From Camarhynchus parvulus (Eukaryota > Chordata > Aves > Passeriformes > Thraupidae): DNA of 64,000 nucleotides. The number at the start of each line of letters is the position of its first letter. Position 1 is the stretch's first letter. The stretch lies in NCBI RefSeq assembly GCF_901933205.1, contig NC_044576.1, positions 9,457,024-9,521,023 of the forward strand, in the 5' to 3' direction. Under the pieces are notes generated by a model, which worked only from the letters and a program-made list of their open reading frames with translations, did not search any database and was not told the origin of the DNA. Positions 2,040-45,330 of the stretch are shown here, in pieces. A program made the position numbers and the translations under genes.

Positions 2040-2817
2040 CTTCCCAGTGTTTTTATTCATGTCCTTCTCCTGCTGGCTCCTGCTCTTTCGGGGTGCTGTG
2101 TCAGAAGGAGGCAGTGCTGAGTGAGTGCTGCTATTGAACTTCCATGCTCAAATCTTGCCCCTGGCAAGTCCAGGGCAGAAGCAAAGCACAGCATCATGTC
2201 AATGTGCCCCAGCAAAACCCAGCGTAAGCTGCAGGAAAATGAAGAATTTCTCCAAGCCTGCCCGCTTACCTTCTGGGAATGCAGGTACTGAGGCGCACAT
2301 TGCTCCGCCAGCTGCTGCAAAGCACATTGTGCACAGGACAGAGCAGTGCCACTGCTGTAGGGGACCTGCACCCGACTCAGAGCTGCTACCACAGCCAGGC
2401 CAACATCTTGAAAAATGGGCGTGGGATTTGGAGTGATGGATTTTCAGACACCTCAAACCCTCCTGCCAGACCAGGTCAGAAGAAGCATCCACCAGGGGCT
2501 TGGCTGCAGATCATCTTGTTTGAAAACCCAAGCTCTGGGTAGAGACCTCCAAACCAGGGGCAGCCTGAGTCCCTGTTCATCTGGGGAGACTGTGGCTGGC
2601 ACACTCAGCACCGTGGGCAGACACAGCTGCAGGGAGGGCCCATGGGACACGGCTGAGGGGACAGCAGTCACGATGGTGCTTGCAGAAGGTGAGGGGTGGC
2701 TATCACAGCGAGAAGCTGCTCTGGTTCACAGGGTGCTGACAGACACAAGGAAGAGACAGCAAGTAAAAACATCCATGCCCAGCCACAGTCTGCAGTCTCT
2801 GGGGCTGCTGAGAGCAC
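2040..2817 (-). other. CDHR1: Probable CDHR1 3' untranslated region
   Basis: Follows the TAG of the standard tail. The first AATAAA on the minus strand lies at 2052-2057, giving a 3'UTR of about 780 nt. An ATTAAA at 1802-1807 and AATAAA copies near 700-710 and 780 could extend it. Overlapping plus-strand open frames here are not convincing. Confidence 0.45.
2052..2057 (-). terminator. CDHR1: Candidate CDHR1 polyadenylation signal AATAAA
   Basis: First canonical hexamer downstream of the standard stop codon. A weaker ATTAAA lies about 250 bases further. Choice of site is inference. Confidence 0.4.
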
Positions 2818-3369
2818 CTAGATGTGGGGCTCCCCGAAAGCTGCGTTCCTCTTCTCAAACCTCATTTTGAGCTCTGACACCAGGGCGTTGTGGGTGCTGC
2901 TGTGACCTTTCTTCTTCGGTGGCTTGATGACATGCTTGGGAGTGAGGGAGCCGGACACGGTTGGCACTCGCCACCCTGGGCCATCACCTCGGGGAGCCAG
3001 GGCAGGGGGTGGCGGGGGCACGGGGGCTGCCGGCGGCACGGGGACAACCTGCACGTTATTGTTGCTGTTCTCATTGTGTAGGCTCTTCACGTCCTCCTCA
3101 ACCACAAACTTCTCTGCAGCGTTGCTGGGCCTCTTGAACTTCAGCCACTCCATCCTGACTGTCCGGGATGGCGGCACCTGTCTCTTTTTTATGATCCTCC
3201 TCACCGGCATGACTTTGTTGGACCGCTTGTTGCGCCAGAACATGGCAGTAGAGATCATGATAGTTATCAGCACCATTATGCCCATGACACCAGCTAGCAC
3301 TCCTAAGGCTTTCATGGGGTTATCTTTAGTTTGCATCAAAAAGGCGGCCATAGGCCCTTTGTGAAGAGT
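2818..3369 (-). CDS. CDHR1: CDHR1 coding exon 17: standard membrane helix and cytoplasmic tail
   Basis: After acceptor tttacAG, 183 codons start [20 protein letters not shown] (human [20 protein letters not shown]). A hydrophobic helix of about 24 residues follows, ending ISTAMFW, then basic [18 protein letters not shown]. The rest of the tail includes a proline-rich run ([13 protein letters not shown]) and the conserved blocks [10 protein letters not shown] and [13 protein letters not shown], ending EPHI. The tail differs from human in the middle but keeps both conserved blocks. Stop is TAG. Confidence 0.98.
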   Translation of the reverse strand, partial: TLHKGPMAAFLMQTKDNPMKALGVLAGVMGIMVLITIMISTAMFWRNKRSNKVMPVRRIIKKRQVPPSRTVRMEWLKFKRPSNAAEKFVVEEDVKSLHNENSNNNVQVVPVPPAAPVPPPPPALAPRGDGPGWRVPTVSGSLTPKHVIKPPKKKGHSSTHNALVSELKMRFEKRNAAFGEPHI

Positions 3370-6300
3370 CTGTAAAGGAGTACAAAGAAAACACATGACT
3401 TACTCCAGGGGACAGACAGTGACCCAGAAATTTCATTTGTCCAAAATATGTTACAAGTAGAGCTGATTGATGGGAGTTGTCTCTAATTTAAAATATGACA
3501 GTCACACAGCCAGTCCAGTGCAGGGGTGGAGAATTTAGATGGGGCTGGAGACTGGGTAAACATTATAGAACTGTGAGGTAGATGACTTGAACACAAAAGC
3601 TTACAGAAGTACTGCCACCAAATTAGGGCACATTCCTGCATGTCACCATAGTGTTTAACTGGCAAGAATGGAGCAAGAAAATAATTGGCTCAATTACTGA
3701 GCATGGCATTGAAAAGGATTAGGAGAAAGCTTCTGCTTATAAAACGTTAGTGTACAAATGAGTAGTTAGCAGATATGTGCTGCATTCTGTTTTCAAGTAC
3801 TCTTTTACAGACAAAACAAAACTCTTTGAGGTAGGGGAGATAAATGGAGCTAAAGAGCTTTGTTTATAGAAAGAAAAGAAATCAGCAATGACATAAGCTA
3901 CATATGGCATATTAAGGACAAATGAATGGCCAGTTCACTTTCCAGCTCAGCACACTGTGCGTCTTGGAGGTCCCCGTATAATTTTGCGGATTTTGCCCTG
4001 CGGGTGGAGCTTGGATCTTTTCACACTTTTCCAGTACATGATGGTGGAGATCACCATTGTAACAGAAATGGTGGAAAGGACGCCACTCATGCATATTCCA
4101 TATATTGTCCATGGACGCTTCTTGAGGCCTAAAATATAGGATTTTACCCTGGACTTGATCTGGAAATATCAAAAATAAGAGAAATGGTCAACCCTCACAT
4201 GGTCATATTTGAAAGAGGCCAGTATTTATTATAAATACAGCTGGGGAACTAGGCTGAAACGTGCACAGGATAGAGAGCCTATAAAATAAAGGGAGCTATG
4301 TGTTGAACTAAGGACAGGAGAGGAAGTGGTTGCAATGATGTCGAACTGAATCCAGAAACAGTAACAGAAGTTAAGAATCGCATATAAGCACCTGGCTGAT
4401 TGGGAAATAAAGGCTAGAGGCATGGCACATAGATCACCCTTATTCAGGGCATGGTAGCCTATCCTTGGACTGCATTCCCAAGAGAAGTTCATTGTGAATA
4501 CGAGTGGTGTCTGAACAGACAGCAGTGCTATGTAAGGCCTGGAGAGCCTTCAGAAATGGCACATTCACACGCAGGTTTGGTTACTGAGAGCTGGTCATGA
4601 AGTGATGTGTGGCTGCAGAAAGACAGGGCTATCCACTGTGCCCTAGTCCCCTGTCTTTGACTACAGGAGGGAATCCTCACCCAAACTTTACATGTCCAGT
4701 GCTGTGTTTTAGTTAGAGGTCTGAGCTCCCAGCTTTTGGTCAATGCGGAGAAAAAGACCCCTCTGGAGCAGTAGTCACCAAAACAGGTATCGAAGACAGT
4801 GTGTATAAGGAGAACCTTGTCAGCAGCTTGGACTTGAACCTCTGACTTGTAGATCAGATGGATTTCCCTGTGTGACTCTAATCTAGGATGCCCATCTCTT
4901 GGCCCTCCCCAGTCTGTGGGGGAAGATGACTAAGAGTATCCCAGAGTGTGCTTCAGAGTACCTCTTGTCATTAATGTCACATCCATAAACTAGGGGCATG
5001 TAAATTAGCTAATAAACACCTCCTTGTCTTAACTTCTGTTTTTTCACAACCTATCTCAAACACTTTATCAAGCCCACTCTTCTCCTACCCTGAATTATGT
5101 CCCATTGCCAACAAAAAAGTAGCAAAGAAATGCTAATGAAACTCACAGACCATGTTACTGGGCAGGTAGGGACAAATTTTCATCATTTTGCTGTACAGAG
5201 AGTTCTTCCACTACTTAATTAGGAGTGGACCTGAACTAGAAACTAAAAGCAAAGCAGCCCATGACTTTGGTGGAGCTTAGACTCACATCAGCTTTGATGT
5301 TCTGCATTACAAGGATTTTTTTGTACTTAAATCCCATCAGATGATAGAAATTATACCCTGGTTTACTTAACTTCATGTGAAAGTCAGATAAATTAAGTGT
5401 CAGATAAACCCTGCTAAGTAGTATGTGACCTGAGTCCGCCTGTTACGAGTTTTGTCAAGATCTATTTTAAAGGAAGGCACTGATGGCTGAAGAGTATTTG
5501 GCTAGGTATTTGAAAACCTTGAATAAATGAGATTAGACAGAAGTACACGTTGCCCATGTACTACAGCTCCAGAGGTAAGAACAGATAAAAAATTGTACAG
5601 AGAGTTTTGACATTTGGCTTCGTTCAGTTGCTTGTCCTCAGAAAATCTGGCATCTGTTCAGAGCTTCCAGTGATGAAGAGATGATTAATACCAAAACTAA
5701 ACCCATTAACAGCTAGCTGGTTCAGCCTCTATTTTAGTTACTTGACCTTGACTATACAAAGCTTTGCCTGGAATTAGCCTTGGACAACAACTGTTCTGCA
5801 TAAAAACATCAGACATTTTGTAAGCACACAGTGGGAGAGTTTCTGTTTGTCATGGCCATGACACTGGCAGGATAAATAGAATGAATAACTTGCAATACAG
5901 GCCAGGAATGTCATAATCTTAGCCGGGCTGCAGAGAGACTTATGGGAAGTGCACATTTAAAACATCAAGTCCTTGTGTTGATTACCAGCAGTGCCACATA
6001 GCCAGCTCAACCAATAGTGCCAATTTGCAATTGCTGAAGCTGTTGTGTTTTTTCCTAAAAAACATGCTGCACTTTGAAGAGCACTGGTTTTTCTGGTACA
6101 CATAAAATAAAAGCAGATACATAATTAAATGAAAGCTGTCATATCTTTGTGGGCCAGGACATCGAAGAAACGCTCCTTAACAGTCATCAAGGGAGTTAAA
6201 ACACCAAAATACCACTGCTCACAGAAGATAATGCTCTGCTGTTTTTTTGGGTTTTTTTGGCTGTGGCAGCTTCTCAAGAGCCTTTCCTACTGCATGGGTT

Positions 6301-9300: not shown

Positions 9301-12300
9301 TGCAAGCATGTGCTGCACACCATAAATCGCTGCTTGTTTTTCTGCTGACTTAAAAGCTGGACTAAAGAAAATGTCAACCTACATGTGCAAGACTGTTTTA
9401 GAGTCTTCTTGTGTAACCTGCTAATAATATTGCAATTATTGAACTCCCATCCAAAGTTCTATGTTCTTTAAAGCATTTCTGTAAAGTTTTTTCTCACTTT
9501 TCCTATGTCACTTAGGTTGATTTCTCTGATTTATCTCGCTCTGACCCCAGCTGTTTTCCACTCATTTTTTGTAAGGGAAAAAGGTTTTTTTTCTTCTCCT
9601 GGATGAAAATAAAAAAGCAGAACTTTGGCAGTTGGGATTTACCTTTACTTTCAGAAGTCTATAGACCTTAATTCATATCTAACAATCTCTAACAAAAAAC
9701 TCATCTCCCAGTTATATAATGCTCCTACCTTTGTACCTTTGCAATATTTCTGATCAAAATATCTTTCACATTTGTGGCTGTAGAATCCAACTTCACCACA
9801 AGGCTACAGAAATACTCTGCAAAACAGAGCTGGCAAGAAAGTCTCAGAAATGGAGCAAGCAATGTCTACCCTTTGGCGCCTTTCAGGGGTTGTCTCCCAC
9901 AAGGATTTTTCTAAAACATTTGCTTACCTCTTCTGTGATATCAATCTTCAGAACTGCTGTGGTACTGAAGGATGGGGAGCCTCTGTCTTTGGCCTGCACC
10001 ACCAGTGACCATATGCAGTCTTTATTGTTTGTGATGTTGTGGATGATGTCCAGAGATCTGATATAGGATTTCAGCTTGATCTCCCCGGTGCTTTGGTCTA
10101 TGTCAAACACATTGGCTGGATCTGCTTGCATGATGGAATAATCCACAATGTTGTTGGGCTCTTCTGCATCTTGGTCTATGGCCTGGTAGGGGAAGTGTGA
10201 AAAACAAAGGTGTTATTGTTTGTATCTTTGCCTGAGGACAAACACCTTCTGAGCATTCAATTCTGGTAGCATCTGTGCCATGACTGGGCTGCTTTCATCT
10301 AGGAAGCTAGGCTACATTTTCTAGTGAAAAACAGCAGGACTAGGCTCCTTTCTTTATAAATTACTTCCATTTGAGATTAAATAAAATCAGAGGAAAAACT
10401 GAACTGTCCCTATCTGTAGGATGCAAATGGTCCTCAGCTGGGAGCTTCTCACACAGTGTGGGGGACAAATGTGAAGTGATAAAAAACAATGGGATTAGCT
10501 CCATGCCATAAAATATAGCTGCCTTAATTTTTGTGCTGTGGTATTTATTCAACTAACATTAGGTGTTGTGTGATCAGGCTTCATGATGTGCATTTAAATG
10601 TGTAACATAGGATGTTCTGCCTGGGAATCATTATTGCATTTTTTCACCTTCTGTTCTGCACTGGATTATTGGATATGGTTCTCCAAAACGAAGGGAACTA
10701 AGTTGTGTGGTTGAACACAAAGGGGTGTCAGGAAGGTTATGTATTCAAAACCCTTTCATTCACTTATCTTGTTTGGGCTTCTTGTGATCACTGTATAATC
10801 CAGGACTGTCCCCAGCTGATTGTTCAAATACTGTAACAGGACTTTATATTCTGCCTATAGAATTTATTTCTCCTTTTCAGCAGTCAGTAAATACTATAAT
10901 TCTACCTTTAATCCATTTGTTACATCTAAATGGATGTGCAAAATAAAGCTGCAAGAAAAGACAACTTTCAAACATTCATCATGATCCCTGAGAGTAAAGA
11001 GCAGAGCCAGGGCTTTTCCAAAGCACTCTGCTTTGTGACACACGGTGCCATCGCTCACCTCTATCTTCACTGGTGACCCAATGATCATTGTCTTCTCCTG
11101 GATGTTTTCATTGAACTCTGGAGAGTGGTCATTGACATCTAGCACGGTGATAAACACTTCAGCCAAGCTGTATTTCCCATCTGTGTCCTCTGCTTTCACA
11201 TAGAAATTATACTTTGAGCTCACTTCAGCATCTAGCACAGCCCAGGGCTGGGTGTAAATTATACCTGTTGATGGGTGGATTAGGAACCTGGAAAAGAAGC
11301 AAGAGAAGACTTTTGGTTACTTAATGTGGGTTTAGATCCCACCTTTGCTCCAGGCTGTAAAGACTGAAATGTTGTGCCCAGACATTGGTACTCTTCACCT
11401 AATTCCTCTCCGGGTGATGTTTCCAAATCTTTCACTCTACCTGGTTTTTGTCTAGTTCCTTTAGGCTTAAAAACCAGAGAACTAGCAGTGTCTCATAGTT
11501 TTCTCTCTCTTGTAGCCATTTTAGCTGCATTTTCCATTAAAAGTCTTTGTCCTCAGTAAATGCTCAGTGTGATGGCCTTCTCCCAGAGTGATTTTCTTGC
11601 ATTATAAGGAAAAACATTAAGCCTATTTTTTTTCCAATTTAAAAGTACAGTGCAATAGATTATGTCCTGCATAAATTAAGATTGATTTATGTCACCTAAA
11701 TATCTAAAAGAAGTGTGATGCAGATCATATTTAAGGTCTTTACTTCTCAGAATGGGTAGAAAAAAATCTGCTCTTAAATCTCCCAAACTACAGGGCAAAT
11801 TCTCTTTTCCAAAAATAACCATTTTTTCATAGACTGACACTAGGATGGAGTGGGTGTTCCGATTTATCTGTTGCAAGTTCAGTTTTACACATTTGTAATT
11901 ATAGAGACACTGTCAAAAGTATCAGCCCAAAGTTTGGATTTATAGAGAAGATACCAAAAAATGTCTTTTTAAAATGGACAGCCAGTGTAGGCTCCAAGCA
12001 GTAGTGCTTTTAACAGATGAAAGTTTTTATATTTCCTTTGATCAATGTACAGGGTAGCAAAATATTTTCTGTATTCCAACTCTGAATGCAACTGAGAGTG
12101 ACTATAAAAGGGGCATTTAGCAATCTAGAATCTTCAATTGTTCTCATAACCCTGTTAAATACAAATACAAGTTTTGATGAAAACCAGGATCTGGAGGTGG
12201 GAATAGCTGTGTAGGAGACAGTGCCTGTGCTGCCTCCTCAGCAGCCAGCCCAGCCTAACCATGCAGACAGCACTTTGATCATTCCCATTTTAGGGGAAGA

Positions 12301-15300
12301 ATAGAAGTGCTCCCACTGGCAGCTTGGATTACCAAAGTAGGATTGCCATCAGATTGGTTTCATCTTCAACAGTTAACACTATTTCTCTTATTCCAGTACA
12401 ACTCATCTTTCTGCCCACGCAACTGCACACCCACTGATGTAATATCCAACACAGAAACATTATGCCTCTAGCTGAAATTCTCCTATCTGCATCAAACTGT
12501 GTGCTCAGCACATCTAGAAGTGCCAGGGCTAGAAAATCAATCCAGCCTTGCAGAGTGATGCCATTCTGGCAGGAGGAAAGCAAACAAAAATACTTAAGAA
12601 GGAAAAGAAAAGTTCACATCATAATTTCTTCATTCAACAGCATAAGAACAGTGAATCTGAGCGGCCCCATAATGCCAATCAGAATAAAGTTGTGCTTATG
12701 TCTTTTTTTCCCCTAAATCCTTTGTCAACAACCTTCTCAAGCTTCTTTCCACCAGCTGCTGCATTCTAAACCTAAGAGGTCTGCCTGCATGACATGACCT
12801 TTTCTTGCTTCTCTCTGTGCAGTTAGCAGCTAGCTTAAAGACTTAGTGAAGAGCTCAAAATAATCCATCGTGGAAATGCTCCAAAATGTGTATCCTTCTG
12901 GCTACCGAAGAGGTTCACCCTTAACATCTTGGATTTTGGACTTTGATTGTGCCTCTTAAATGGCTTTCACCTTAACAAGAAGAGTTCAGCTTTAGCTCCA
13001 GGTGGATAAAGATTCTTGAGATGAGTGCCTGAAAAGCTCAGGCTTTTCATTCATTTCCAGCATCCTGCCCTGCAGAATGCAGGCTCCAGCAGGAATATCT
13101 GTGACAGCCATGTCACTGATCCCAGCCACGTCTGGGAGCTGGGATGGACATGGTGTGAAGGAATCAGTGTTTCAAGATGTTCTACCCCCAGCACTGTCTC
13201 CCAATTCAGGGAGAGGAAGGGAGGCATTATTACCAAATCAAGTAAGCATCACATTCCCTTTTTTCTGACCAGGACTATTATATTTAAAAGCTGAAAGGCT
13301 TTTAACAGCCAGTGCAGCTGACCTCCAAAGCTGAAGTGTATATCCTTGAATATCTTGTCTTCCTTGATTTATCTTGACAAGAGCTATTTGTAAAGCCATA
13401 TGGAAAAGGAAGGGGAAAAAACCCAAGAAATTATTTTTCTGTAGAACTGACTTTTCACAACTAGACCAAAATCTCTCTTTCTCTTACCAGTGTTTTTCAA
13501 ATGGTGATTGAACAAATCCTGTGTATTGTTACTTTAGCTGCTTTGTATCTCTTTGGGGGTTTGTGGGTAGAATTCCTTGGTTGATGAAGTGGATTTTTAA
13601 TGATCACAGTAGCTTTACTGTTGTTGCGTTCACAGAACTCACAAAGAACAGGGCATAAATGTCCTTGGAAATGAGCAGACCAAGAATGAGCTTGCTAGCT
13701 TTCTTTTAAAATTATTTCAGAATGCTGCTTAGAGGTTATGTAATTTTATTTATTTATTTGTTACTTACAGATCTGCTCCTGTTCCGTAGATAGAGTACTT
13801 GATTTCTCCCCAAAGCCCTGAATCTGGATCTGTAGCCTTAAGAAAAAAAAAGAGAGTTTTACTTTACTAAAATAGAAAAAGAACTGTTTAATTTTTCTTT
13901 TGGCAAGAGGCCCAAATGCTTTTCACCCTCTTTGCCATCACATTTTTAGTGGGAAACTGCGTGAGCAAATATGCACCTAGAAAGTGCACAACCTACCACC
14001 AGGAAATGTCCCTGCCAGCCCCAGGAATGCTGTCCCTGTGCCCGGGGGCTGTGGCACAGACAGTGACGCTAGATGGCCCCATCCATCCACAGTTACCTTC
14101 TCCTCCTTTGATAGAGATGGAGATAATCTCAGTGACATGAACACTGCCAGCTCTGAGACCTTCCTAATTATCAGTTAAACATTAATGAATATTCCCTAGA
14201 CAAAACTATTTACTTCTTATATTGTATTTTTAAGCTTCTGCTTGTTTAATTAAGTCAATTTATAGTAATGAATAACAAATGTTTCAGTCTATACATTGTA
14301 TTTCAGCTTTGTTTATTTTTTAATCACTCTTGTGCCTGTTTGACTTTTAATAATGTACATACTGCTACCAGATGATATCTTTGTTTCATACTCTTGTTGG
14401 CTTCCTTTCTTAGCTCAGGCTTAGGAAAGCTATTGATTTGGTAGCAGCTATTTCCATAAACTCCTGCTCCTCTGATAGCTCTGAGGAGGTGTTATACCAT
14501 TGTACCTGGCCATCAAAATTCATGGTGGTGCTGGTTGATTCATTCATCTCCCTGTTTAAATATCTGAGAACTGGAACAATGTTTTTGATTCCTGCATTAT
14601 TAACATGACACACCTGCAGCCCTACTGATAGATGTAGTTTTGTTCTTTGGCATGAGCTTGTCAGATTCTCTCACCCCATGATTTTGACCACGGCCTAGTT
14701 TAGTGCTGTCTGCCTTCACTTAAAACATCTGCATACCTGGGACTTCTTCCAGAATTGCCATTCTGAGTACTTGAAACATCTTAGTTTTTCATGTATAGTT
14801 GTAAATCTGGGTCAAGTACTGAGTTGACAGCACATGACTAAATTTTACATGGGCTCCTTCAGCTACACGTTCCCGTGCACTTTGGCTCAGAAGTTTTATT
14901 GCTTCTGCAAACATTTTTTAAATCTCTTCTTTTTTTTGCTGTCCACATCCTGGAATTTTTTATTCCTCTTACCTCAAAGATAGTTATGTTTAAGAATCTC
15001 TAATAGATTTCCTACTAGTTTCATGCAATAACCTTTTCTCTATTGTTTATCGTTCAGTTCTTTGATTCGTCCATTAGTAAAATTTGCCTTCAGCACTTTA
15101 TTATTCTGATTATTTAGTTGTCTTTCTTAGGTGTTGCCAGCTTGTGCTGGAGATCTCTGGCAACCTGCCCCCACCATCCTCACCTGTGTGGCCTCTGCAA
15201 GGTGACTTGCATCCCCCACCAAGGCCAGGTGGCCAGGAGCTTTCTTGGCTTTGTGACATGAGGGCTGTTTCCAGTCTCAGCAGTTGCACTAGAGAGAAGC

Positions 15301-18300
15301 AGCTGGAAATGCTCCTCCAGCACTCAGGGCCCATGTAACAACCCTGACTTTCTTTGTATGAAAATGCAAGATACTGGAAAATCTATAGGCATATTTTTCC
15401 CACTGTGAGAAGATGCATACATAGGGATCTTTTTTTCCCAGTCCTAAGCACTTTCATTTTATATTCTTGCCCTCATTAACTGTTTAATTATTCCTTTAGC
15501 AGCCAGGTTCCTCCCAAGAGGAGGAGACTAATACCTACTAAGCAGCCATCTTTTTTTCTTTTTACTCATACTTAAGCAAGCAAATCCAGTAAATCCAATT
15601 CCACTTAGCCATAACTGAATCTTCCCATTGGACACTGATTTGGCTTAGGCTTTCTTAATACTCAAGGGCCATGTGATTTGTCTTAAAAGCAGATGGCTCT
15701 TGTTGTTCTAAATAATATTTGTCTAAAACTTTATTTTTTCCCAAAGTGGTTTTTTTTGGGTTGATTCTGGAAAATAATTGGAGTTTGGTCCAGAAGTCAA
15801 ATGTTGAGTAAGATTTGCTATTTGCCCTGTCCACTGTTTTTAAGGTACTTGAACTGTTTCCACAGACACCCAGAAAAGAGAACATTTCTTAAGAGGTGAA
15901 TGAAACTTACTGTAACAGCAACTACATTGGAGCCCCCTGGGGAGTTCTCAGGGATCCTGGCAATGTAGTAGTCAGAGGAGAACTTGGGGACATTGTCATT
16001 GGTGTCCAGCAAGCGAATCACCACGTCAGCCGTCGAGCTGAATTTCTCCGGTGTGTTCACCTCAATTGCAAGAAGCTAAGAAGAGAAAAACCAGAAATCA
16101 CTACAAGGCACCTATTAGTTCTCTTAAAAGAGCTTCCTCCACCATCTGTGGCACGATGGTGCATTTTAGCCTGGTTGGAGCAGACAGCTTATAACCAGGG
16201 AGATGATGAGCCAGGTCAGCGTGCGGCCTCGGCTCGTTTGTATGTGCTTGCTTGAGATGGGCAGTCAAACTGTGAGGAGAGGCCTTCAAACCTGTGTATT
16301 CATATTAGATTTCATGTGAGAGATGTGACTAGTCATAACTAACCAACACACGTCCAAAAACCATAACAGAAGCCAACAAACAATCATCCCTGGGCAGCTC
16401 CTAGAACTTTGGGAAACAGAAGCACTGAATTATTTTGAATAACCACATAAACTTAATTGTGATCTTTTGTAGAGGAAGTTCTTCATCAAGAAAGAAGGCC
16501 AGAACAATAAACTGCACCAAACAGGGTAAAAAGATGAGGGAACCAGTTGTTTTGAAGCAGCATTACTCCCACCCCAAATGCTGGATGGTCAGGCATGTAG
16601 AGCAGAGCCCCATTTCCCAAAGATTGTGAAGACTTCTGCTACTGACTTCATGGCACTTCTACCCTCATTGCCTCACACTGATTAGGACTTTATCAGATAA
16701 AATGAGAGCTTTTGAATTGTCTCACTGTCTATGAGGAGAACAGAGCTCTCTGACATCACTCATTCTTATAAGTGCTCATCTGAAAGCACAGGCAATCACA
16801 TATAGTAAACTGAGTATTTATCTATCTGCTCCTTACTGAGCAAAATCTGCTGGATTTGGGGAGCATCAGTAGGATGCCTCAGCAGGTAGAGCAGCAAGCT
16901 CAGGCGGTCTGTGGTGGTTCTGTAAGCAAGAAAAGAGAGCCACTGGGACTTTCACAGGGTCTGTCCCAGTGTCTGCATCGCTCAGGATCAGCACTAGGCC
17001 ATCAGTCCTGGGCTCTGTGGGGGCTGAGCCCAAATGCATAACACCAAAAACAATGGTCTAATGTTTGGTTTTCATGCTTGGGCAGAGACATAGTTAACAA
17101 AAGCAGGAGGGCTTTAAGACAGCACACCACTAAATAGACTACTGAGCAGGACATGAGCTGAGATCTAAGAGGCTCAGCTGAGAAATCTGGCTGCAGGGGT
17201 TTTAATTGCTAGGAGACGTGTCCCAGGAGCTCCCACAAAGAGGGAGTGCCTAAGGGAGCTCTGGCAGGAGCAGCAGGGCTGCCACAGCATCCCCTGCTCC
17301 CCTGGGAGCTCATCCTTCCTGTGCAGGGCCTGCAGGGAAGTGATGCTCCTCAGCAGTGGCACCCCCGACTGCCTGGGGGACACCCTGGGCTCAGGGCTCT
17401 GCTCTGCCAGATTTGGACAATTTGTATCACCTCCAGGTGAAAGCAGAGGGTGGGGAGCTGTTCAAGTAGAGAGGGAAAAGGCTACCTCAGTGTCATCTCC
17501 TAGAGCTGTGCCTGCTGTGTGGGCATTTATAATGCTTGGAAATAAAGAGAAGAAATGAATCTCGAGGGATTGCTTGCAATTACTGCTGCTCCAAAAGGGG
17601 AGCCTGGTCACTCCATTGCTGTGACCTCCCAAACTTTTGTGTTTGGGAGTCTCAGGTGGTGTTACAGCAAAAGAAATTTTTGAAGGGACAGCCATGCAGA
17701 CATCAGCAAAAACCTCCTCATGAGAAATCTCAGCTCCTAAAGCAGTACAGAGGTAAAATCTTAGTGCTGATTGTGCACATGGAGCTATTACTAAATTATA
17801 ACATCTGCAGTTAAATCATCTTTGCTGCTGCAATCAGCCCATCTTAGTACACCTTATGAAAGCTCAGTGTTTTTACTTTGTTTCCTACACTCACTTTTTA
17901 TTCCGTCTCCTTTAAGCAGCCACAGTCCTGCTATGTCAACATGCTGACAACATCTTCCTTCAGGGAGGAAATTTTGTCAGCTCACTGGCCTGCAGTGCCT
18001 TATGCAGACCTGTACTGTTTGTTTCATGCAGAGAGAAAAAAAATAGTGTAAAACTATTACTTCACAGGACTACATATCAACAATTCATACTTAAGTGCCA
18101 GAAGAGCAAACGGACATGCAATCTTAAAAGTGGTAGGTGACTTTTTAAAATAGAGTTTGACTTTGGCAGCTGAAGATAACTGCAGCCTCACCTGGTCCCA
18201 GTCTGTAGATGTGAGTGTCTGCAGCATGTCCAGGCTCCTGCCAAGGCAAGATGCTGAAGGAGATGGAGGCAGGAGGTTTGTCCCCAAAGCATGGCAGCCC

Positions 18301-21300
18301 ATAACAAGGTGGGACAGCAATATCTGGCCCCTGTGGCAGAGGGACTGCAGAGATGTGTGAATTACCACTGCTGCCATACTTTGGGAAACCCATTTGAGCT
18401 CTTAAACAGCTGAAAATGAAGGAACTCCTGACTACCACCTACATTTAAGAGCCAGCACTAAATGGAAGATAGGTTTCTCTAGCAGCCTTTGCTTCAGAAA
18501 GTTTTTCAGCGCATCTCCCAGACAAATTAGCTTTAATTATTCTCTGGCATTTTACTCTTCAAAAATGAACTAGAGGAGAGGGATCATTGCTTACAGAAAA
18601 AAACCAAAACCCTGAAGAGAACCTCTCAAAGCTGTTGTGAGATACATATTAAATAGAAATATATTTCTTCCAAAATTCTAACCAGATTGACTACACTGAC
18701 AACTAAAACTGGGTAGGAAGTGATTTGAACTTTGCAGGAAAGTCAAGCCAGCAATGAGGTCTTTATAAAGTATTTGCTGCCATATATTGCTACCATATAA
18801 TCCATCTGCACCTTCTCCATTTGGAATCCAGAAAAAGGCTGCACTTTTTAAGCCAAGTCTTACAGTCTCCAGTAGAAATAATTTTGGAAAGTCTTTCTCC
18901 AGTAGAAATAATAATAATAAAAAAAGAATAACTGCTTAAGCTATAAAAATATATATCCTTTTTCCTGGTAATTAATTCTTTTGGTGTTCATGGCAATCAC
19001 ATTAGCTACTTTGATTTCTATTGGCATTCATGAGGAGGCCATGTATAACTCCTTTACTGGTCTTTTGGTAGTTTAACCTGAATAAATGTGTGCTTGTTAT
19101 AATTAGTTTCAGTAGCACTTTATGGCCCTTTCAGAATCTTCCACTTTAATGCAGTAATGATGCCTCATATTTTTGTAGCATCTATAACATATAAAGCTCA
19201 AAATGGCTTAGGAACATTACAAGAAGAGGCCTGAACCATACTGAAGTGAAACTTGCTGAGGACACGAAGCAAAGGGGGAGAACAAAATTGTGGAATTTTG
19301 GCTTTTGGATTGTGCAAGAAATGCCTCTCTCTCTACATTACAAAACTAGCATATGTTAATACTCAGCTAGATTGTTTTGGCATTTTTTTAAATGATTACA
19401 GGGATTGTCTATGCAGTTCTTTGCAGTTAGAACTGAAACATTTACACTCAGTTTCAGAGGCAGCCCACAGAAATCCAGACTACTTAATTATCTTGTTGAT
19501 GAGCCAAAGAATCCATCAGGGAAGGTGATAATGCAAGGTTCCAGCTTTTGGATTAAACTGGTTCTTGCAGGGCTGGTTTAGAGCGTGGGTGAGCCTCAGG
19601 TCAGCCTGCAAATGGCCATACAGATAGATAGACTCTGACAAAGGCAGTGAGCAATTTTGGGGAATTATCTTCCAGTCAGCTGTGGTCTTCAGGCTGCCAA
19701 CATCCAAAAGCATGATCGTGAATCAAATTACTTAGCACTAAGTAGGTAAAGTTCTTGCTGCAGAGAAATTAGGATTTCATCCTGTGAATGTATCATTGTG
19801 AGTGCAGAAATAACACCCTGAGGGTTCGGTCTAGAATGATTCAGAGCCACCAACATGTACAGTTTCCAGAGAGACATAAAAATGAACATTTGGCACTGAC
19901 TGGACTAAATCAGTCCACAGATGCATCCATTAAACCTTGTGAAGGTGATGAACCAGAGGCAGAAATGAGTTTCCCTTACATGGACTATCATGTATCTGAT
20001 AATGCACCAGACAGCTCTGGGTGGATTAAGCTAAATCACATCAGATACAAAAGCCATCGTACCCATACTGTATACACTGAAAAAGAGGATCCAGAAAGCA
20101 GAAGTACCTTGAAGGTTAACACCTTGAAACTTTCATAGTCAATGGCACCAGAATTTTCCACTATTATTGTAACCTGAGCTTCATTCAGGACAGTTTGAGG
20201 AACCACTCGGAAGATGCCACCAGGTCCAACAAGACGGAGGTTGAATTTAGCATTGGCTCCCTGTTGATAAAAGCAGACATGACATTGATTGTTTTCAGTA
20301 ATGTCACATTTCTTACAGCCTGGATTGCTCTGTTTCTTCAAACTACATGAAATGAGAACGAGCCTTACTGCTGAGAGCCCTCTGCTCTCCATCCCCTGGG
20401 CAGGAGATCACTAAGAAGCTTAGCTGTATAATCCCTCCAGCCCTAGTCACAAGACAGACACAGCTTTTCTTAAAATAGATTGACAAGCTTGGTTATTCTT
20501 TCAGTCATAATGGAAAAACCCTGCAGCAGGCCTGGCTAAGAGAGGAGTCTTGTGGCAAGCAGCCTTGGGTTTTGTGCCACATACTGGGAGCTAGACAGAG
20601 ATGCCACCACGTGCATATTAGCAGGGAAGTCCTGCCTCTCCCTGCTTCCTGCCCAGGAAAGACAACTGAACTGCTCCAGTAAGGACAGCACAACCTCACA
20701 AACCCAACCTCACAGAATGGTTTGGGGTGGAATGGACATTTGACATCACCACATTTCAACCCCCTTGCCACAGGCACAGACACCTCCCACTAGACGGGTT
20801 GCTCAGAGCCCTATCCAGCCTGGCCTTGAGCACTTCCCATGTCCAGCCTGTGTCCTAATAACTCACATGCTGTGTGAGTTGTTCTTCATGCATTCTGCAT
20901 GATGAAGATGCAGAATCACAAAGACAGGCAATTTCCAAACAGGTGTGGAGTAGCACATTTTGCACTGATTGGATTAAGCTAGCCCAGAGGTGCAAACACC
21001 AAATCTTTTGGAAGTTGATGCACTTGTGGGGAGAGAGGACTTCCACTTGTGCAGGACAAAATCTGACACACTTGACAGCTCCAGGTGAAGTGAGAAGGCA
21101 AATCCCCTTACACAGATAAACCTTCTAGCCAGAGAGAACATGGGGAGCAGCAGTATCTAAAAGGTTATCATTCCTTGTATGGAAGCTGGGAAGAGTGAGC
21201 CAGAGCCAGCTGGCCAGGCTAATTCTTTTAAACCAAACTGGAGCATGTAAGAGAAAAGATGAAAGGGGGATCCTCATATTTCTGCCTTACAGGGAAGATG

Positions 21301-24300
21301 TGAAAATGAGCTGAGCCTACCTCACCAAACTCTCTGGGTTCACCAATTTCTCAGTGTCATGTTTACACTGTGACAAACAGCCAGATTCACTGCCTGCCTG
21401 GTGCCACGCTCTGCCCGTAGCATGAATCTTGAGATGATGAATTTCTAATAATAACTTTCAAACAGGACAACTTTACTTTCAGCTGTATCCCTGGAGAGCT
21501 TGTTATGAGCAGTTCTTGAGCAGCCCTAGCTCATGACAAGAGAAAAAGGATTCAGCAATAGTTCCTTAAGAGAAACAGAATGAACTTGGATCCAAACTCA
21601 ATGGTCTGTGTTGTTTGGTCACACAAACCCACTCCCCAGCTACAGAGATGATAATGGGCTCTCTTTTGCTGGGTGGCAAAGCCAAACACACAAAGCCACA
21701 GCTGCTGGGCTATGGAAAATAGTGCTGATGGAAAGAGTGGACAGTCTGACAATACAAAGTCAGACAAAGTCATACAAAGTGTGTGGCACATGGGACTGTA
21801 CATTACTAGAAGGATGGCATGGGACAGGGAGAGAACTGCCTCCCTCCAACAGCTGAGTGATTTCTGCCACAGAACCCAGATCTGCTCAGAGCCAGCCATG
21901 CTGCTGCATGTCTCCAAGCAGACAGCCATGGGACACAGGAATGACTGAAGGAACAGCAGCACTGAGTCCTAAGCCATGCTGAAAAGGTCTGGGAGAGAAA
22001 TTTCTGTATCATTTTCTTGCAAGTAAGCATGGCATTTCCATCAATCTGTACGCCTAAACCAGACCTTAACCACAGCTTCCTCCTCCTCTTCACTTTTATT
22101 GTCTGCTCCACCAAAATAAAGAGCCTCTAGCAGCTGTGACAGAGACAGACACATGTTTAATTTTTTCCCTACAGAATCATCTTGGATGGAAGGGAAAATA
22201 TTGCATTCTCTGCCTTAGAAGAAAAGCAACCCATCCCCCCTAGAGTGATGCCTTACACTATACTAGGAAGCTTCTTGAGAAATCTATACAGTGTATTTAT
22301 CAGTGTTTTCTGCTTATTTTATAGCCTAACTTGCAGCCTGAATATTTTGTCAGCCTAGATATATATTTTGTCTCTAAAGAGAAGAGATGGGTTTTGTTTC
22401 TCCCCTTCTGCAGCACCATCCCCCATGACAACAGCAGGATAGACATAGCACTGCTTTGAAAGCAGTCATTTATCTGCTCGCTGCAGAGCAGCAGGAGGGA
22501 GGGGGAAGAAGCCAGTGGGTTTGATAAAGTACAATACCATCAAACCAGCACAATACTGAGCACAGTTACAGAAGAGAGTTCTTTCCAATAGTAATACAAT
22601 TGTCAGATGCATTAAGCTTTCTTCTTGTCACTAGCTAACCTGAGGCTAACTCAGATGGATGTCATTCATACAGTATTTAGCTTAGGGGTCCCTATAGCAA
22701 CCACTGCCATAGCACCTACAGGTATCACAGGTCAGTTAGACAGCAGGCTGAGATGGATGGAATCTTCTTTCCTTTTCCTTGATCTGGTAAGAGTTAGTTT
22801 GGCTTGGGCATAATTTTTAAGAGTACCTAAAAATATCATTCCAGTAGGAATGATTAATCAAACATGCACTGCAGACCCTGACTGTAACATAAGGGCTAGA
22901 AGAGGATGCAGACAGTAATTGCACCTGAAGTTACTAAAGGGCTTGGAACCTCCAAGAAAATCTTCAAAAGGAGTATGTTCTCAGACAATACACTGGCAGC
23001 AAATGAACACAACCAGTAGTTAGGGAAGTTCATAAGGAATGTTCAGCTTCAGTTGACACAAGACCTGGGCTACAGGTTTAGGACCACCCTTCTCATTGCC
23101 ATAACAGTACAGGACAGACTAACTGAACTCCTGGGTCCAGTCTCTCTGTGGTACTGGACCATACCACTACTTTGTCTGTCCTAGGCTTTTAGGGAATGCA
23201 GGTGAAACAGCTGAGTTTCTAAAATGCCATTTCTCCATCTGAGATCTCTTTCTAGTCTTTAGGAAAACAGGACAGGAAAAGCGAAAGTCTGCATAGTTTC
23301 TGTTTACCTGATCTGAATCATTGACTGTGATCTTCAATCCCCGTAAGATTTCACCCTCTGGGGGATGCTCATACATGGTCAGCTCAAACCTGTTCTGAGG
23401 CCCATTTTCTCCATAGAATGTTGGTGGGTGGTTGTTGAGGTCCACCACCCGTATGGTCACCATGGCAAATGTGTGCTCGGAGATGTCACCTTCCCGACTG
23501 ACTTCTGATGCCTGCAGCAGACAAGAGGAAGAAAAGAATGATGAAGTAGTTTTCTCCATCTTCAGATTCATGTTCAGGTATTATTCCACATGTACAAAGC
23601 ACTCTAACTTGTAGGAAGAGTCATAGGCTTATATTTCTCTAAAACCTCAGTGCATTTCACACTGAAGTTTATGATGATTAGAAGATTATGGTAATAAACC
23701 AGTCCCAGTAGAGCCCCAGTTGATTCTCCCTCTAATTTTGTCATCTTAGTAACTCACTCTGGGTGAAAACAGTTCTCTAAAAGCAATCCAATAGAGACAA
23801 GGTAATTGCTTGCCTAAAGTGTTGATAGAATAGAAAAGGAAGACAATGTTTAAATTTGCTGTGGTACCACAGGCAGTTCATTGTCTCGTTGCTGCAAGGA
23901 CTGCAGCCTTTAATACTGTGAGAAAAACTGTACTTGCGGTATTTAGGTAAATATAAAAAAGTGCTTTTTTTTTCCGAGATTTAGTCTCCAATTCAAAATT
24001 CTGCTGCAGTGTTTAGATGAGCTTAATTTAAGGTGGATATAGTTTAGGCAGACAGGCAAACCTGGCTGGTATTTTTCTGAACCATGAGATCAAATCTGTC
24101 TGGGTTTCAACAACTGCAACATGTGGCCTGATTCAGTGGATTGAACCTGAGACATTTCTTCTGCCAGGACAGAAACTGGCTGATATTTTTGTCCCAACAG
24201 CTATATCTAACATGCCTTTTTGCTCAAAGGGCTCAAAACCAAAGGCACTTCCTCCAAAGACACTAGTCTGGCAACTGAAGTGCCTGTCACTGTATATGCT

Positions 24301-27300
24301 GGGTAATATAACACCTTTTTGGTTCCTCCAGCAGCTTTTGCAGCCTGCCTGAGCTTTGGGTCACCACACACATAATGAGGAGATCAGAAAAGCTTGCAAG
24401 GCTTTAACCCATTCTGCATCTGGGGAATGGTAGCAGAATGCAGTGAAGCAGAGCTGATAGAGGAAGAAATGGTGCCTGAATTTAACTGAGCCCATGAGAA
24501 TCCATGTTCTCCCAGGTAGCTGTAGCTGTACCTGCCCTGCTTGAGCCCAGGAGCAAGTGCTCTTGGGGGTGCTACACACTGGTTCTGGCAGTGTGCAATT
24601 CCTCAAAGCTGCCTTTAAGCCAGTATTGCCCTTATCACAACAATAATGTGCAGTTCCAACGTGCTGGAGAAAACTGATACAGTCTTCACAATTTAATTCT
24701 GCATTTTAAAACACTTTTTCTTTAGAAACTGCTTAAAATAACACAGCCTGTCACATGAGTAGTGGCTCATTGAGGTGTTAGCTCATCAAGGTGTGAGCAT
24801 GTTTTTGTGTGTGGCTGAAGAGTGCCTCAGGAGGGGATGCTGACATAACACTGCATGATCTGTCCCAGTCCTAATACTAATCATAGATTTGACTGTTACC
24901 TATCTCATAACCTGGAAGTTTCATGACATTAATTCCCAGTAATTCCAATAAAATCTGGAAACACAGAGAACAGGTATCTTTGGACTGTAAAGGATTCTCT
25001 AGTCTCAGAGATGAAATTAGGACAAGATGATTTCATTTGAAAGAAATAACTTGAGATATTAAATATCCCAACAATAATATCTTAACATCAGCAATTAGCG
25101 CTGCTTTATACTACCTGGCACTCTGCTCAAATATGGGAGGTAGTTTCTGAAACAGGTAAAGTCAGCTATAAATTGAACAATTTTGGACAATCATGCCTAC
25201 TCATGGGATTTTAGACCAATAGTCTTAAAGTGGCCACAGTACCTACCTTAACTTTAAGTTCATACACTTCTTTCTTGAGCTGATTTGGGCTTTTTATCAC
25301 AGAAATGGCTCCAGTTGTGTTGCTGATTTCAAATGAACCTTCACTTCCTGCAATGAAACCAAGATGCTCTGGTTGCATGACACTCTTTCTTTGAACAAGC
25401 ATGGGCAAATCAACTGTACACTTCACTAAGCACATCTTTGTCCATATGTGCATCCATATGTACCAGTAGATCTGAAGCCACTCTTCAAAAATGAAGCATT
25501 TCTATGACTGGTGTGAGATGAAAACACAGATGAGGGCCTAAAAGGGCTTCCTCCCCTAGGAACAGCTCAGTGGAGTTCTTCCCTTATGGGCAACTGTCAG
25601 CATTTTCCTCTTCTCATCCTGCTTGGGCTCCCCTCAAGCCTCAGCATCCAGGCATGCAAATTTGGTATTAATTTTATTATGCTGCCTTCTTTATATGCTG
25701 GTTTAGACAAAAATAGACATTTGTCATTGTAATTAGTAAATGCTTAATTAAGTCTCTGAGAAACAAGAACATTTCTCTCACTAATATCAGCTAAGGTGAG
25801 AAGTCTGACAATCTGTCAGAAAGAAACACAGTCACTTCCCTCAGACAGCATCTCTGGAGAAGTGTCTTCTGGTCTTAAACATTGAGTTGTCAAATAAAAG
25901 CTTTCAGCCTGTTGCAAGGCTGCCCTGAACAAAAAGGGTTTTTTGGAGTATCTGGGGTAAACCCCAAGGTTTCTGAACTGAGGCAGAGTCTGACAGAGGC
26001 AGGACAGGGCTGCAGGCTGACTTTGCTACTGCTACACAGCTTCCATTGATCTGGAGAGAACAGCAGTTCCAGGCAGCAGCTCATTGAGGTTGCTGTATTT
26101 GTGCTGAAGCAAATGCCAGCTTGCAGAGGGGCAGCAGCGTCTCACCAGGATGTCAGGAACCATCTCACATCACAGCCAAGGGCAGGCTGGTGCCCAGCAA
26201 GGGCAGCCCTGATGCTGCCTCATGTACAGTATTAGCCACATTCTGTGCTTTGTGGCAGTCTACCATTGAAAGGAAAAGAGAGGAAATCCCTTTAAATGTA
26301 GGAGATCAAGGCTTCAGAAATAAAGGATGATGACCTGAAAGCCCAGTCATTTTTCTTTTCCTCAAACTCATTTCCAATGCTGATTTTTAAACCATCTGAT
26401 AGTATCCTCTTCTGCTAATAGCTACAATAACTGCAACTTCATTAAAACACTCTAGACACAACATTGAACAGATATTGACTCACAATACCCAATTATTAAG
26501 ACACATTGGCCTGCAAAATACATTCTGATTGAAAAGAAGCTTAAGTCAATAGTGGTTTCAAACCACCATACTTCATGTTATTGTCTAGTTATCCCAGGGA
26601 GACTGGTAACCTGGAGTACATGTAGCAGTATTGGTGTTCCTCCAGATGTTCAAAGATTGGAGCACTTCCTATCATTATTCCACACTCCTGGGATAAGACA
26701 GGCTTATTAAGAACAAACAATTTCCTGTTTGCTGTTAGTGTTTCTTGTCCTTTAACATCCCAGCCTGCAGTTATTGGAATAATGGCTTGTCAAAAATAAT
26801 GCCAGTGTCTGAGGTGCAGGAGTAGAAACCTGTTGCAATCTTCTGTTCTCTGTTTTTCAGCTTTCTATGCACTAAAAGCATATTCCCTTCCCCTCTTTTC
26901 CATTTCACATAAACAAAGCCCTTGGTTTATGGGCACGAGAAAAACTTGCTCCCCATTAAGTTATATTTTGTTCTACTTATCTGTTTTCCCCTTCCATCTT
27001 CCTTTCCCACTCTTTCCTAAACACTTACCATTTATTTTTATCCCAGAGAACCCTTTTGGTCCTTCTCTATTTTCTTTGGCAATCCAGTATCTTCTCATTA
27101 ATCTTACTTCCCTTTGACATTTTCCCTGGCTCTTCTGCCTTCACTTGTTCTCCTTATTTAATTTCTCCATTGTTTAGCATATTTTCATCCCATTTGTTCT
27201 TGCTCCTCATTTTGCACCTTTCTTTTTATCTTTTCTCATTTTCTATCCATTGTCCTCTGCAACTGTCTTTTCCTTGATGTTTCTACCTTTCTTTTACCTG

Positions 27301-30300
27301 TTTATTTCCTCACATTAAGAAGGAACCTCAACATGGGTCTCATCCCACACCAACACAAAAACTCAGCTGTATCTCTCTGTTCTGGCTGCTTAGATCACAA
27401 CACAATGAAGCACTTACTCCATAGCTCTTCAACTACACCTCAGATATCTCTTAGGAAGTTTTGGGATCTTCCACATCTGTGAGTTGGGGTGCCCAGTTGC
27501 TACAGAAGCCTTGTTTTGGAAGGGGGAGTGTATAAAATTCAAAATCCCCAAAGCTGTAGCCTGGAGATTAGTTGCTCTAAGCTGTTGTCTTCACCACCTA
27601 ATGAATCACCAATTCACTAAGTTTCACATTCATGCTATTAAAAGATGTGTGACAGACACTCTCAGAATAGCTCATGGAAAGCGTTAATCTTCTGATAACA
27701 TCTGTTTTCTTCCACTACAGTGTACAGCCAATGTCTCTTCATGGTGAATATAATTTCTTCCAAGAAATCGGAGGTTTGACTGTTTAGCTACTTTCATCAC
27801 TGTATTAATGAAAATATCCCTCCAAATGCCATGTCTGGGTCTCCCAATGAATTACCTCACCTCCCAGATTAAGTGATAGAGATGCTCAGAAGAGTGAATG
27901 CATCTCCCTTGACACTTTCTGAAATGACAAGCAGCCTACTGATGCCTAACAAATCAGCAACATTAACAGCTCCAAGCACAGTTCTGTGAAGAAGATACTA
28001 AAACTCACTGAATTGAATCTTGGCTATTCTCTGCTAGACAGGGCCCTGAAGTTGTTTGAGGTACCTGACATTATTTCCTGAGATTTTGTCTCAGGTTTAT
28101 TAAACTCTAGCATATTCTGTTCTAATTTAATGCCAGATGGAGTTTTGAGTGCCCTTCAAATTTCATCTAAGACAAGCCTACTCACCATTCACGATGCAGT
28201 AATGAATACTGTTAGGCTTTCCTCTGTCTCCATCAAGAGCAACAACAGTGAGGACCTCAGAGCCCTGGGGAGAAATGGGAAATCAGAGTCTCTGTGCTGA
28301 GATCAGAGCAGTGAAATTGGAACTGCACATTAATAAACTGAACTCCTCTAAGTCTGTCTGCAGTGAAGTGCTGGGGGCAGAGTGGGCACTTGTGCTTGTG
28401 CCATGTGGGGAGCACAAAAAGGGCCAGTGCCCACTGCTCTGAGTATGAAATGGCTGCAGACCCTGCATGGCCATGGGTGCCCCAGCACTGGGGGCTGGCT
28501 GGTCACAGGAATGGTTGGAAGCTGTGGCCAAGGACACCTGCCTGGGGCCACAGATGTGGAGAGAGGATTTGGAGCAGCCAATCTGGAACCTAAATTTTAG
28601 TTTAGGGCACTACCAAGATTCCCTCTGGCTGCTTCTGTGTCCCATGGCCACACAATGTGCCGAGACACAGGCAGCTGCCAAGAAGTCATTGGGTCACTCT
28701 GGTCTTTCCTAATTAAGTTCAGACAGGCAGTAGAAGAAAACAGAGATCACAGAGCAACTTGCCCCACAGAACATCTAGGGCATAAAATTGTGATGAAAAT
28801 GATGGTGATTTAACTGCCCTTAAACCTTCACTGTGTGTCTTTCTGCACAAGTAACGTGGCTGTGGGCCATACACACAGAATTTGTGTACTGAGGACCATT
28901 TGCTCATGGGACTGCTCCTATCAGCTCAGAGGGATGATGAGTGTCACATTAAAATGCTCACCCAAGTGGCAATGAGCTGTACAATTCAGGCCTCTGCACT
29001 AAAATGTTCCTGTTTGAAGCTGCAGAACCAGGGAACATTGAAGTAACTTTCAGTGAATCACAAATGGCAACAAGGAACATTTTCATGACAACCCTTGAGT
29101 GAATTTTTCAAACAAGAGCAAGGCTCTGTTAAAGCAACTGGAAATACAGAACTGTGTTTATTATCGTTTATGCTGGAAGCAGCAATAAAATCTGCCTACT
29201 GGGCAAAATGCAGTGCAGTCCCTTTGAAGGTGACAGAGTACTTGTAAATCCTGACAACTCCACCAAGGAGAAAAGAAGCAAGTTTACAAAATTAACACCA
29301 AATGCCCAAACACCACTAAAATCAGCTATTGCCTCTTTCTCTGTGGAGCTCATTCTAATGACAAAACCCACACAGGGAAGGACTTCCATCATTATATCAT
29401 AATGGTGTAAGTTATGAGCTCAAGCTGGATGTAATTAACATTTACTGATTCTCATTTCCATAGTAAACACTAACTCCTGTGTGCACCTGATAGTTATTTC
29501 AAGATCTATATGTAACTATGCAGAATAAATCAATATACATAATATCATTCGTTTTAAACACCTGCAAAGTACATGGGCATTACTTTTCTGCCCTGCTGAA
29601 ATGTAACAGCCTCTGCAGTGAACTGCAGTATATAGTCATGCACGGGCTGCAGTGCACATTTCTGGACAGAAAGCTAAGACACAATCTTTCCTGAAACTCA
29701 AGGGAAGGTCAGATGAACAGAGTGCTACCACACTGCTAAACTGATCAATAGCCTAATGTTGGGTAATTTCATGGGTAGATACCATTTCTTGTCGTATATA
29801 TGAAGAAAATTTTAATTAAATCTTATGGATCGGGGTGAAAGCTGATCCATACACAATCATGTCACTGCTTAGATATAGAGAAAATTCATTAGTTTGCAGC
29901 TTCAAGAATATGTGGCTGAAAATGACTGCTTGACTGATAATCTGGTTGAGTTTAGACCTAGGAGGCCTTCCTGGCCCATCCTGCCTAACCAGCCATCACC
30001 GAGCAGAAAGCATCCTGCATTTTGGGGATGTCAAGGTTGCTTATCCCCAGGTGACATCCACAGGACAACACAGAGAGTCTGGAGTATTTGGGCATAAATT
30101 CTGCCTGCACCTTGTACAACCAACTGTTGGTAGCAGACTGAACTGAGCTAGGAAATAAAAGCAGAGTGAGACCATGGAGCAAACAGACACATGAAGGCTT
30201 TTAAGTATGATGTGTTCAGGTGAGGTGACTGGCAGCCTGCTTAAGCCTTCAGCCAAGTGCCTCTGGAGGTCTGAGCTACACAAGAGCTCTTAGTCATTGT

Positions 30301-45254: not shown

Positions 45255-45330
45255 TCTACTGACTGACTGTTAAGAGATTAAAAATAGCCCATTTGAAACA
45301 AAACTGCAAGTATATAAACACAGAGGGTAA
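45255..45330 (-). promoter_or_regulatory. CDHR1: Candidate CDHR1 core promoter
   Basis: Minus-strand TTTATATA at 45311-45318 sits about 60 bp upstream of the ATG. If it acts as a TATA box, the 5'UTR would be about 30 nt. Between it and the ATG lies CTATTTTTAATCTC, which fits a MEF2-type site and contains TAATCT, a CRX/OTX-type core expected for photoreceptor genes. A short upstream frame (ATGGGC...TAA) overlaps it. Based on motif position only. Confidence 0.3.

What the first reader, a model, noticed from the sequence alone, without database searches (positions are those of the whole stretch)
3947..4159. Duplicated, alternative membrane-helix exon in CDHR1
Seen: a second terminal exon just upstream of the standard one, with a good acceptor, in the phase that exon 16 leaves, encoding a hydrophobic helix and a basic tail. 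It aligns with the standard exon at ISTIMYW/ISTAMFW and PPRRTV/PPSRTV. Inference: an ancient tandem duplication of the membrane exon gives two CDHR1 forms sharing the ectodomain, one with a 138-residue proline-rich tail and one with a 27-residue basic tail. In photoreceptors or olfactory neurons this could switch cytoplasmic partners of the same cadherin. I do not know whether any annotated CDHR1 isoform uses this exon.
Basis: partly seen in the sequence, partly recalled or inferred. Interest (0 to 1): 0.82.

Follow-up and report, generated by a model that had tools for sequence, protein, structure and literature searches.

The report
Second membrane-anchor exon of CDHR1
A songbird gene for an eye adhesion protein carries a second, very old version of its membrane-anchoring last exon; it is real, found from sharks to birds and already listed in public protein databases as a second form of the protein, but what that form does is not known.

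Summary
Window 4159..3947 (-) is an intact 70-codon alternative last exon of CDHR1, in the phase that exon 16 leaves. It encodes a juxtamembrane stalk, one membrane helix and a 27-residue basic tail, and is homologous to the standard last exon (blastp E = 9e-9; 0 of 5000 shuffles reach the score). Of the best 120 of 1503 hits, 40 end in this exon: bird, snake, frogs, ray-finned fishes, sharks and a ray. They split from standard tails with 100/100 support, so the duplication is older than the last common ancestor of jawed vertebrates. Human isoform 2 (745 aa) leaves isoform 1 after residue 680, inferred to be the end of exon 16, with a 65-residue tail: probably the same exon, but its sequence was not seen. 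The function is inferred: a form with another stalk and without the long tail. Expression could not be tested here. It is an annotated, deeply conserved isoform, with no function described in the paper passages I saw.

The parts
3947..4159 (-). Alternative last exon of CDHR1: 70 codons plus TGA; stalk (about 17 aa), membrane helix, 27-aa basic tail
   Evidence: acceptor 8.1, phase 0; identical to residues 683-752 of P0001, CDHR1 isoform X2 of Zonotrichia albicollis
2818..3369 (-). Standard last exon (exon 17): 183 codons plus TAG; stalk, membrane helix, 138-aa proline-rich tail
   Evidence: acceptor 10.9; matches standard-form CDHR1 such as P0035, 99% over 78 columns
9928..10182 (-). Exon 16 of CDHR1 (85 codons, last cadherin repeat); common donor for both last exons
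   Evidence: donor score 10.4, phase 0; Pfam Cadherin repeats in the joined exons 3-16
11059..45526 (-). CDHR1 exons 1-15 (start codon at 45526), upstream part common to both forms
   Evidence: exon-by-exon reading; the 630 aa of exons 3-16 differ from P0001 at 5 residues; exact ends of exons 1-3 not tested
3863..3868 (-). Possible poly(A) signal TATAAA of the alternative exon, followed about 40-55 nt downstream by a GU-rich stretch
   Evidence: scan of 11 hexamers: the only one between 3946 and 3370; GU-rich stretch read by eye; use not shown
2052..2057 (-). Possible poly(A) signal AATAAA of the standard exon
   Evidence: hexamer scan; use not shown

Best explanation
The feature is a functional, mutually exclusive alternative last exon of CDHR1 (PCDH21, photoreceptor cadherin). 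It arose by tandem duplication of the membrane-spanning last exon before the last common ancestor of jawed vertebrates. Shown: exon 16 can join in frame to either exon; the alternative exon is kept open and conserved from sharks to songbirds and is present in annotated isoforms. Inferred: the proximal exon, with the weaker acceptor and a non-canonical poly(A) hexamer, is the minor, regulated choice. It gives a protein with the same six cadherin repeats on a different, basic stalk and helix and a short basic tail (net charge +6 to +11, 21-28 residues, in 40 proteins). That form lacks the long tail, so it should escape Siah1-driven turnover, whose degron was placed at residue 857 in zebrafish, and it may be shed differently because its stalk differs. 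I expect a longer-lived adhesion molecule held at the membrane by its short basic tail. The confidence given is for the conserved, protein-coding alternative last exon; for the turnover and shedding mechanism alone it is about 0.3.
For: Exon anatomy and phase. Homology of the two exons. Annotated isoform X2 identical over 70 of 70 residues, in a cluster of 44 member sequences. 40 of the best 120 proteins listed (of 1503 hits) have this tail, from Zonotrichia to Cetorhinus, Stegostoma and Narcine. Alternative and standard tails are separated by a branch with 100/100 support in a tree of 92 rows and 81 columns. 7 of 70 positions invariant in 41 sequences, others such as SR..SY, ISt..yWksVK and KIiRrp mostly kept. 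Identity to the window exon over the tail: python 51/70, Xenopus 48/67, bowfin 47/65, basking shark 36/70. Degron at residue 857 of zebrafish Cdhr1a (PMC7719784, passages); the 40 alternative forms are 708-771 aa long. Stalk replaced: PCDH21 is cut into 95 and 25 kDa pieces (PMC7083943, passages).
Against: No RNA evidence was available here; I take 'X2' and 'T2' entries to be automatic gene models (recalled). The poly(A) signal is only TATAAA, and two upstream AGs score higher as acceptors. In the top 120 no turtle, crocodile, lizard or mammal protein with this tail was listed, though standard forms of them were; placental mammals were not in the list in either form. A search with the tail alone found no mammal, but it also recovered only 12 of the 40 known alternative forms, so it is a weak negative. 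Exon 16 is more conserved than the alternative exon (bird-python 77/85, bird-Xenopus 76/85). None of the 76 standard tails matches the full Siah motif P[ARTE]xVxP, so the degron argument rests on the published zebrafish work alone.
Confidence: 0.9

Rival explanations
1. The exon is real and used, but as a low-level regulatory choice: splicing to it ends transcripts early and lowers the standard form, and the protein made matters little.
For: It is the proximal of two last exons, with weaker acceptor and weak poly(A) hexamer.
Against: The amino-acid sequence is conserved from shark to bird, including helix and basic tail; mere termination would not need that.
Confidence: 0.07
2. It is an internal or poison exon: inclusion brings an early stop upstream of the standard exon and nonsense-mediated decay.
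For: The stop lies before the standard exon, and a moderate donor (6.5) lies at 3404.
Against: The other seven donors scoring over 2 between 4159 and 3370 are all below 5; database proteins end at this stop as complete isoforms; tail sequence conserved.
Confidence: 0.02
3. A decaying duplicate or a chance open frame.
For: The exon is diverged from the standard one (30% identity), and open frames after acceptors are not rare.
Against: Homology E = 9e-9; open and conserved across jawed vertebrates with its own clade.
Confidence: 0.01

Closest known systems
CDHR1 isoform X2 / isoform 2 in NCBI annotation (P0001-P0010, P0012, P0013 and others)
   Same: Same gene, same junction after exon 16, homologous tail; P0001 (Zonotrichia albicollis) identical over all 70 residues of the tail
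   Different: Nothing at the protein tail; the window comes from a slightly different songbird sequence (5 differences in 630 residues of exons 3-16)
Human CDHR1 isoform 2, NP_001165442.1
   Same: 745 aa, identical to isoform 1 over the first 680 residues (PMC6201214, passage); a c.2040+5 variant makes exon 16 skip, so codon 680 is inferred to be the end of exon 16 (PMC5539332, passages); tail of 65 residues, within the 64-71 of the tails here
   Different: Its tail sequence was not seen in any call; orthology is likely but untested, and no mammal was found by the tail search, which was insensitive
Standard CDHR1 (isoform 1, exon 17)
   Same: Same six cadherin repeats; homologous stalk, helix and PPxRTV region
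   Different: 138-residue proline-rich tail with SELK motif (75 of 76 standard tails, 0 of 40 alternative tails)
Nonclustered protocadherin splice isoforms that differ in the cytoplasmic domain (Pcdh10 and kin)
   Same: Alternative splicing changes the cytoplasmic part (PMC9040349, start of abstract in the search listing)
   Different: Here the membrane helix and stalk are swapped too, through a duplicated exon; the comparison with those genes rests on the listing and recall only

Membership tests
Alternative last exon of CDHR1 (annotated isoform 2/X2) | Can join exon 16 in frame | tested here: met
   phase 0 donor and phase 0 acceptor
Alternative last exon of CDHR1 (annotated isoform 2/X2) | Tail sequence matches annotated isoforms | tested here: met
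   70 of 70 residues in P0001; 40 of the 120 listed proteins carry homologous tails
Alternative last exon of CDHR1 (annotated isoform 2/X2) | Spliced RNA joins 9928 to 4159 | not testable with these tools
   no reads available
Alternative last exon of CDHR1 (annotated isoform 2/X2) | Own cleavage and poly(A) site | tested here: inconclusive
   of 11 hexamers only TATAAA at 3868 lies in the 577 nt before the standard exon
Tandem duplicate of the standard last exon | Sequence homology beyond shared hydrophobicity | tested here: met
   E = 9e-9; 0 of 5000 segment-preserving shuffles reach 95
Tandem duplicate of the standard last exon | One duplication older than the species compared | tested here: met
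   alternative and standard tails on two sides of a 100/100 branch; standard tails came from tetrapods only and 81 columns are few
Ortholog of human isoform 2 exon | Sequence similarity to the 65-residue human tail | not tested
   human tail not retrieved; only junction and length agree

The most novel reading that the evidence does not exclude
A membrane-anchor switch in CDHR1, older than the last common ancestor of jawed vertebrates and overlooked in photoreceptor and dystrophy work: the alternative exon makes a form with the same six repeats that escapes Siah1-driven turnover and normal shedding, and that is invisible to antibodies against the standard C terminus and to tests of the 17 standard coding exons.
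Probability: 0.3. Interest if true: 0.68.

Novelty: already known. Interest (0 to 1): 0.42.

Why it matters
CDHR1 mutations cause cone-rod dystrophy, and the two papers seen on its shedding and Siah1 turnover concern a protein with the long tail (one probes the C-terminal fragment, the other a degron at residue 857; passages). A second anchor kept since before sharks and bony vertebrates parted implies that a different form is needed somewhere. It would matter for reading variants in the alternative exon, for antibody choice and for gene-replacement constructs that carry one form only. The exon boundaries, species alignment and conserved residues given here make that testable at once.

Tried and rejected
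Chance frame and decaying duplicate: rejected. Poison exon: made unlikely.

Search with the 70-residue tail alone as a short protein: no candidate, because only proteins of similar length are candidates. Replaced by the joined exons 3-16 plus tail, region 380-700, and then P0001 with region 683-752, which recovered 12 of the 40 alternative forms already seen. Viral contigs with the first 88 residues of the standard exon: no relative. PDB with exon 16: 11 other cadherins and protocadherins; with the tail: one match at E 0.22. Pfam: six Cadherin stretches in the joined exons; for the two tails only weak matches below the curated cut-off. Rfam: nothing at gathering score in the window. A Siah motif: the full motif was in 0 of 76 standard and 0 of 40 alternative tails, and a VxP occurs in 22 of 40 alternative tails, so I do not claim that the alternative tail lacks every Siah contact, only that it ends before residue 857.

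A weak similarity at about 33400 (-) to the standard stalk (score 50, next 40) was left as chance.

dN/dS was not computed: no DNA of other vertebrates was available. The tree used standard tails of tetrapods only, because by their names no fish standard form was among the 120 listed. Of those 120, 4 (P0057, P0078, P0093, P0102) could not be split at the exon 16 end and were dropped from the counts; their ends look standard. Of 76 standard tails, 50 distinct stretches went into the tree.

Paper searches for a description of the form: (10 of 10; searches found nothing). The papers opened were looked into by passages only. PMC6201214 states that human isoform 2 exists; none of the passages seen describes its anchor or function. 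Most subscription papers are not held; Rattner 2001 and 2004 I know only as cited.

Full report
What is there. The window holds CDHR1 on the minus strand, start codon at 45526 and standard stop ending at 2818. I read exons 3 to 16 one by one with their splice sites; joined, they give 630 residues with six Pfam Cadherin stretches. Exon 16 (10182..9928) ends in phase 0. The standard last exon is 3369..2818, 183 codons. Between them, at 4159..3947, lies a second exon that begins after a fair acceptor (8.1 on an approximate matrix; the standard one 10.9; 13 of 14 internal acceptors scored, 6.9-15.1) and reads 70 codons in phase 0 to a TGA. Two AGs upstream, at 4278 and 4307, score higher (10.8 and 10.0), so the score alone would not pick it out. 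It encodes a basic stalk, a helix (best 19-residue hydropathy 1.84; standard 2.6) and a tail of 27 residues with 10 basic and no acidic residues.

More than chance. Acceptor plus open frame alone is not rare in this window. The proof is homology: blastp with the standard exon gives E = 9e-9 and 21/69 identities, the alignment score of 95 is not reached in 5000 full or 5000 segment-preserving shuffles, and the exon is the best non-self match of the standard exon in a six-frame scan of the window. The genome (1.05 Gb, 1343 contigs) gave one match to it, the window's own.

Is it annotated? Yes. A search with the joined exons plus this tail gave as best hit 'cadherin-related family member 1 isoform X2 [Zonotrichia albicollis]', 752 aa, a cluster of 44 member sequences, identical over the 70 residues. 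The window is close to that sparrow but not the same sequence: 5 of 630 residues differ in exons 3-16. Of the best 120 proteins listed (out of 1503 hits), I could split 116 at the end of exon 16: 40 carry the alternative tail and 76 the standard one. By the names the 40 are 1 bird cluster, 1 python, 8 frogs, bowfin and gar, 1 sturgeon, 24 teleost proteins, 2 sharks and 1 electric ray. A second search with the tail alone listed 12 proteins, all of this form, 70-100% identical, none a mammal, from only 16 candidates; it missed 28 of the 40 alternative forms already known, so its silence on mammals says little.

How old. Over the tail the window exon shares 51/70 residues with the python, 48/67 with Xenopus tropicalis, 47/65 with bowfin and 36/70 with basking shark; the first 71 residues of the standard exon share 55/71 with the python and 56/68 with Xenopus, the rest of the standard tail 66/112 and 58/111, and exon 16 (of P0001) 77/85 and 76/85. 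So the alternative exon is a little less conserved than the stalk-helix part of the standard exon and more than its distal tail. A tree of 92 tails over 81 columns separates alternative from standard with 100/100 support. As shark tails fall on the alternative side, the duplication predates the split of sharks from bony vertebrates. Standard tails in the tree are from tetrapods only.

Humans. PMC6201214 (passages) says that human isoform 2 (NP_001165442.1) has 745 residues and is identical to isoform 1 over the first 680. In PMC5539332 (passages) a c.2040+5 variant makes exon 16, or exons 15 and 16, skip, and exon 16 codes for 86 residues with the last repeat; I infer that codon 680 is the end of exon 16. 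The human form thus leaves at the same junction with a 65-residue tail; tails here are 64-71 long. That makes it probably the same exon, but no call showed its sequence, and I found no mammal with this tail. Turtles, crocodiles, lizards, marsupials and platypus appeared among the 120 only with ends that look standard; placental mammals were not among the 120 in either form.

How it probably works. Shown: two in-frame last exons, one common donor, conserved coding. Inferred: a competition between a proximal last exon (weaker acceptor, TATAAA as the only poly(A)-like hexamer of 11 before the next exon) and a distal one. The alternative form keeps the six repeats but changes stalk, helix and tail. 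Two published properties of the long form bear on it. First, PCDH21 is cut into 95 and 25 kDa pieces (PMC7083943, passages, citing Rattner 2004). The stalk is part of what the exon swaps: net charge +2 to +6 over the first 17 residues of 40 alternative tails, against +1 to +3 over the first 20 of 76 standard ones. Where the cut falls was not seen. Second, zebrafish Cdhr1a is destroyed through a Siah1 degron that starts at residue 857 (PMC7719784, passages), while alternative forms end at 708-771. I therefore expect a form that is turned over and shed differently. Against leaning on this too hard: the full Siah motif was in none of the 76 standard tails that I had, and a VxP is present in 22 of 40 alternative tails.

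What is not known. No expression, protein or phenotype evidence could be examined. Ten paper searches found one paper that states the human isoform 2 protein and one that cites, for a variant, a transcript number that I recall as isoform 2's (PMC9368980, passages). None of the passages seen describes what the tail does. A laboratory study of PCDH21 with prominin-1 used isoform 1 (PMC11405016, passages). A dystrophy study sequenced the 17 coding exons (PMC2806159, passages). A zebrafish study of cdhr1a has no occurrence of 'isoform', 'alternative' or 'splice' in its main text (PMC13090022, passages).

Verdict. It is already annotated as an isoform and therefore not new as an object; its age, its origin by duplication of the membrane exon and the lack of a described function in what I could search make it moderately interesting.

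Noticed in passing
P0077 (Gadus macrocephalus): The entry named simply 'cadherin-related family member 1' ends in the alternative tail, so in some species the alternative form may stand in the databases without an isoform label.
   Followed up: no
one search list (turtles, crocodiles, lizards, marsupials, platypus): Standard forms of these groups are among the 120 listed but no alternative tail; this may be an annotation gap, the capped list or a loss of the exon.
   Followed up: no
window about 33400 (-): Weak resemblance (KANPVKSLGIL) to the standard stalk TKDNPMKALGVL in a CDHR1 intron, score 50 against 40 for the next; probably chance.
   Followed up: partly
standard tails: A motif scan of the standard tails finds KIMP 53 times, KVMP 10, RVMP 5 and KILP 5 (73 of 76 proteins); the window has KVMP. 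A published zebrafish Siah degron has a VmP core, and how it is conserved in birds is unclear from these sequences.
   Followed up: partly
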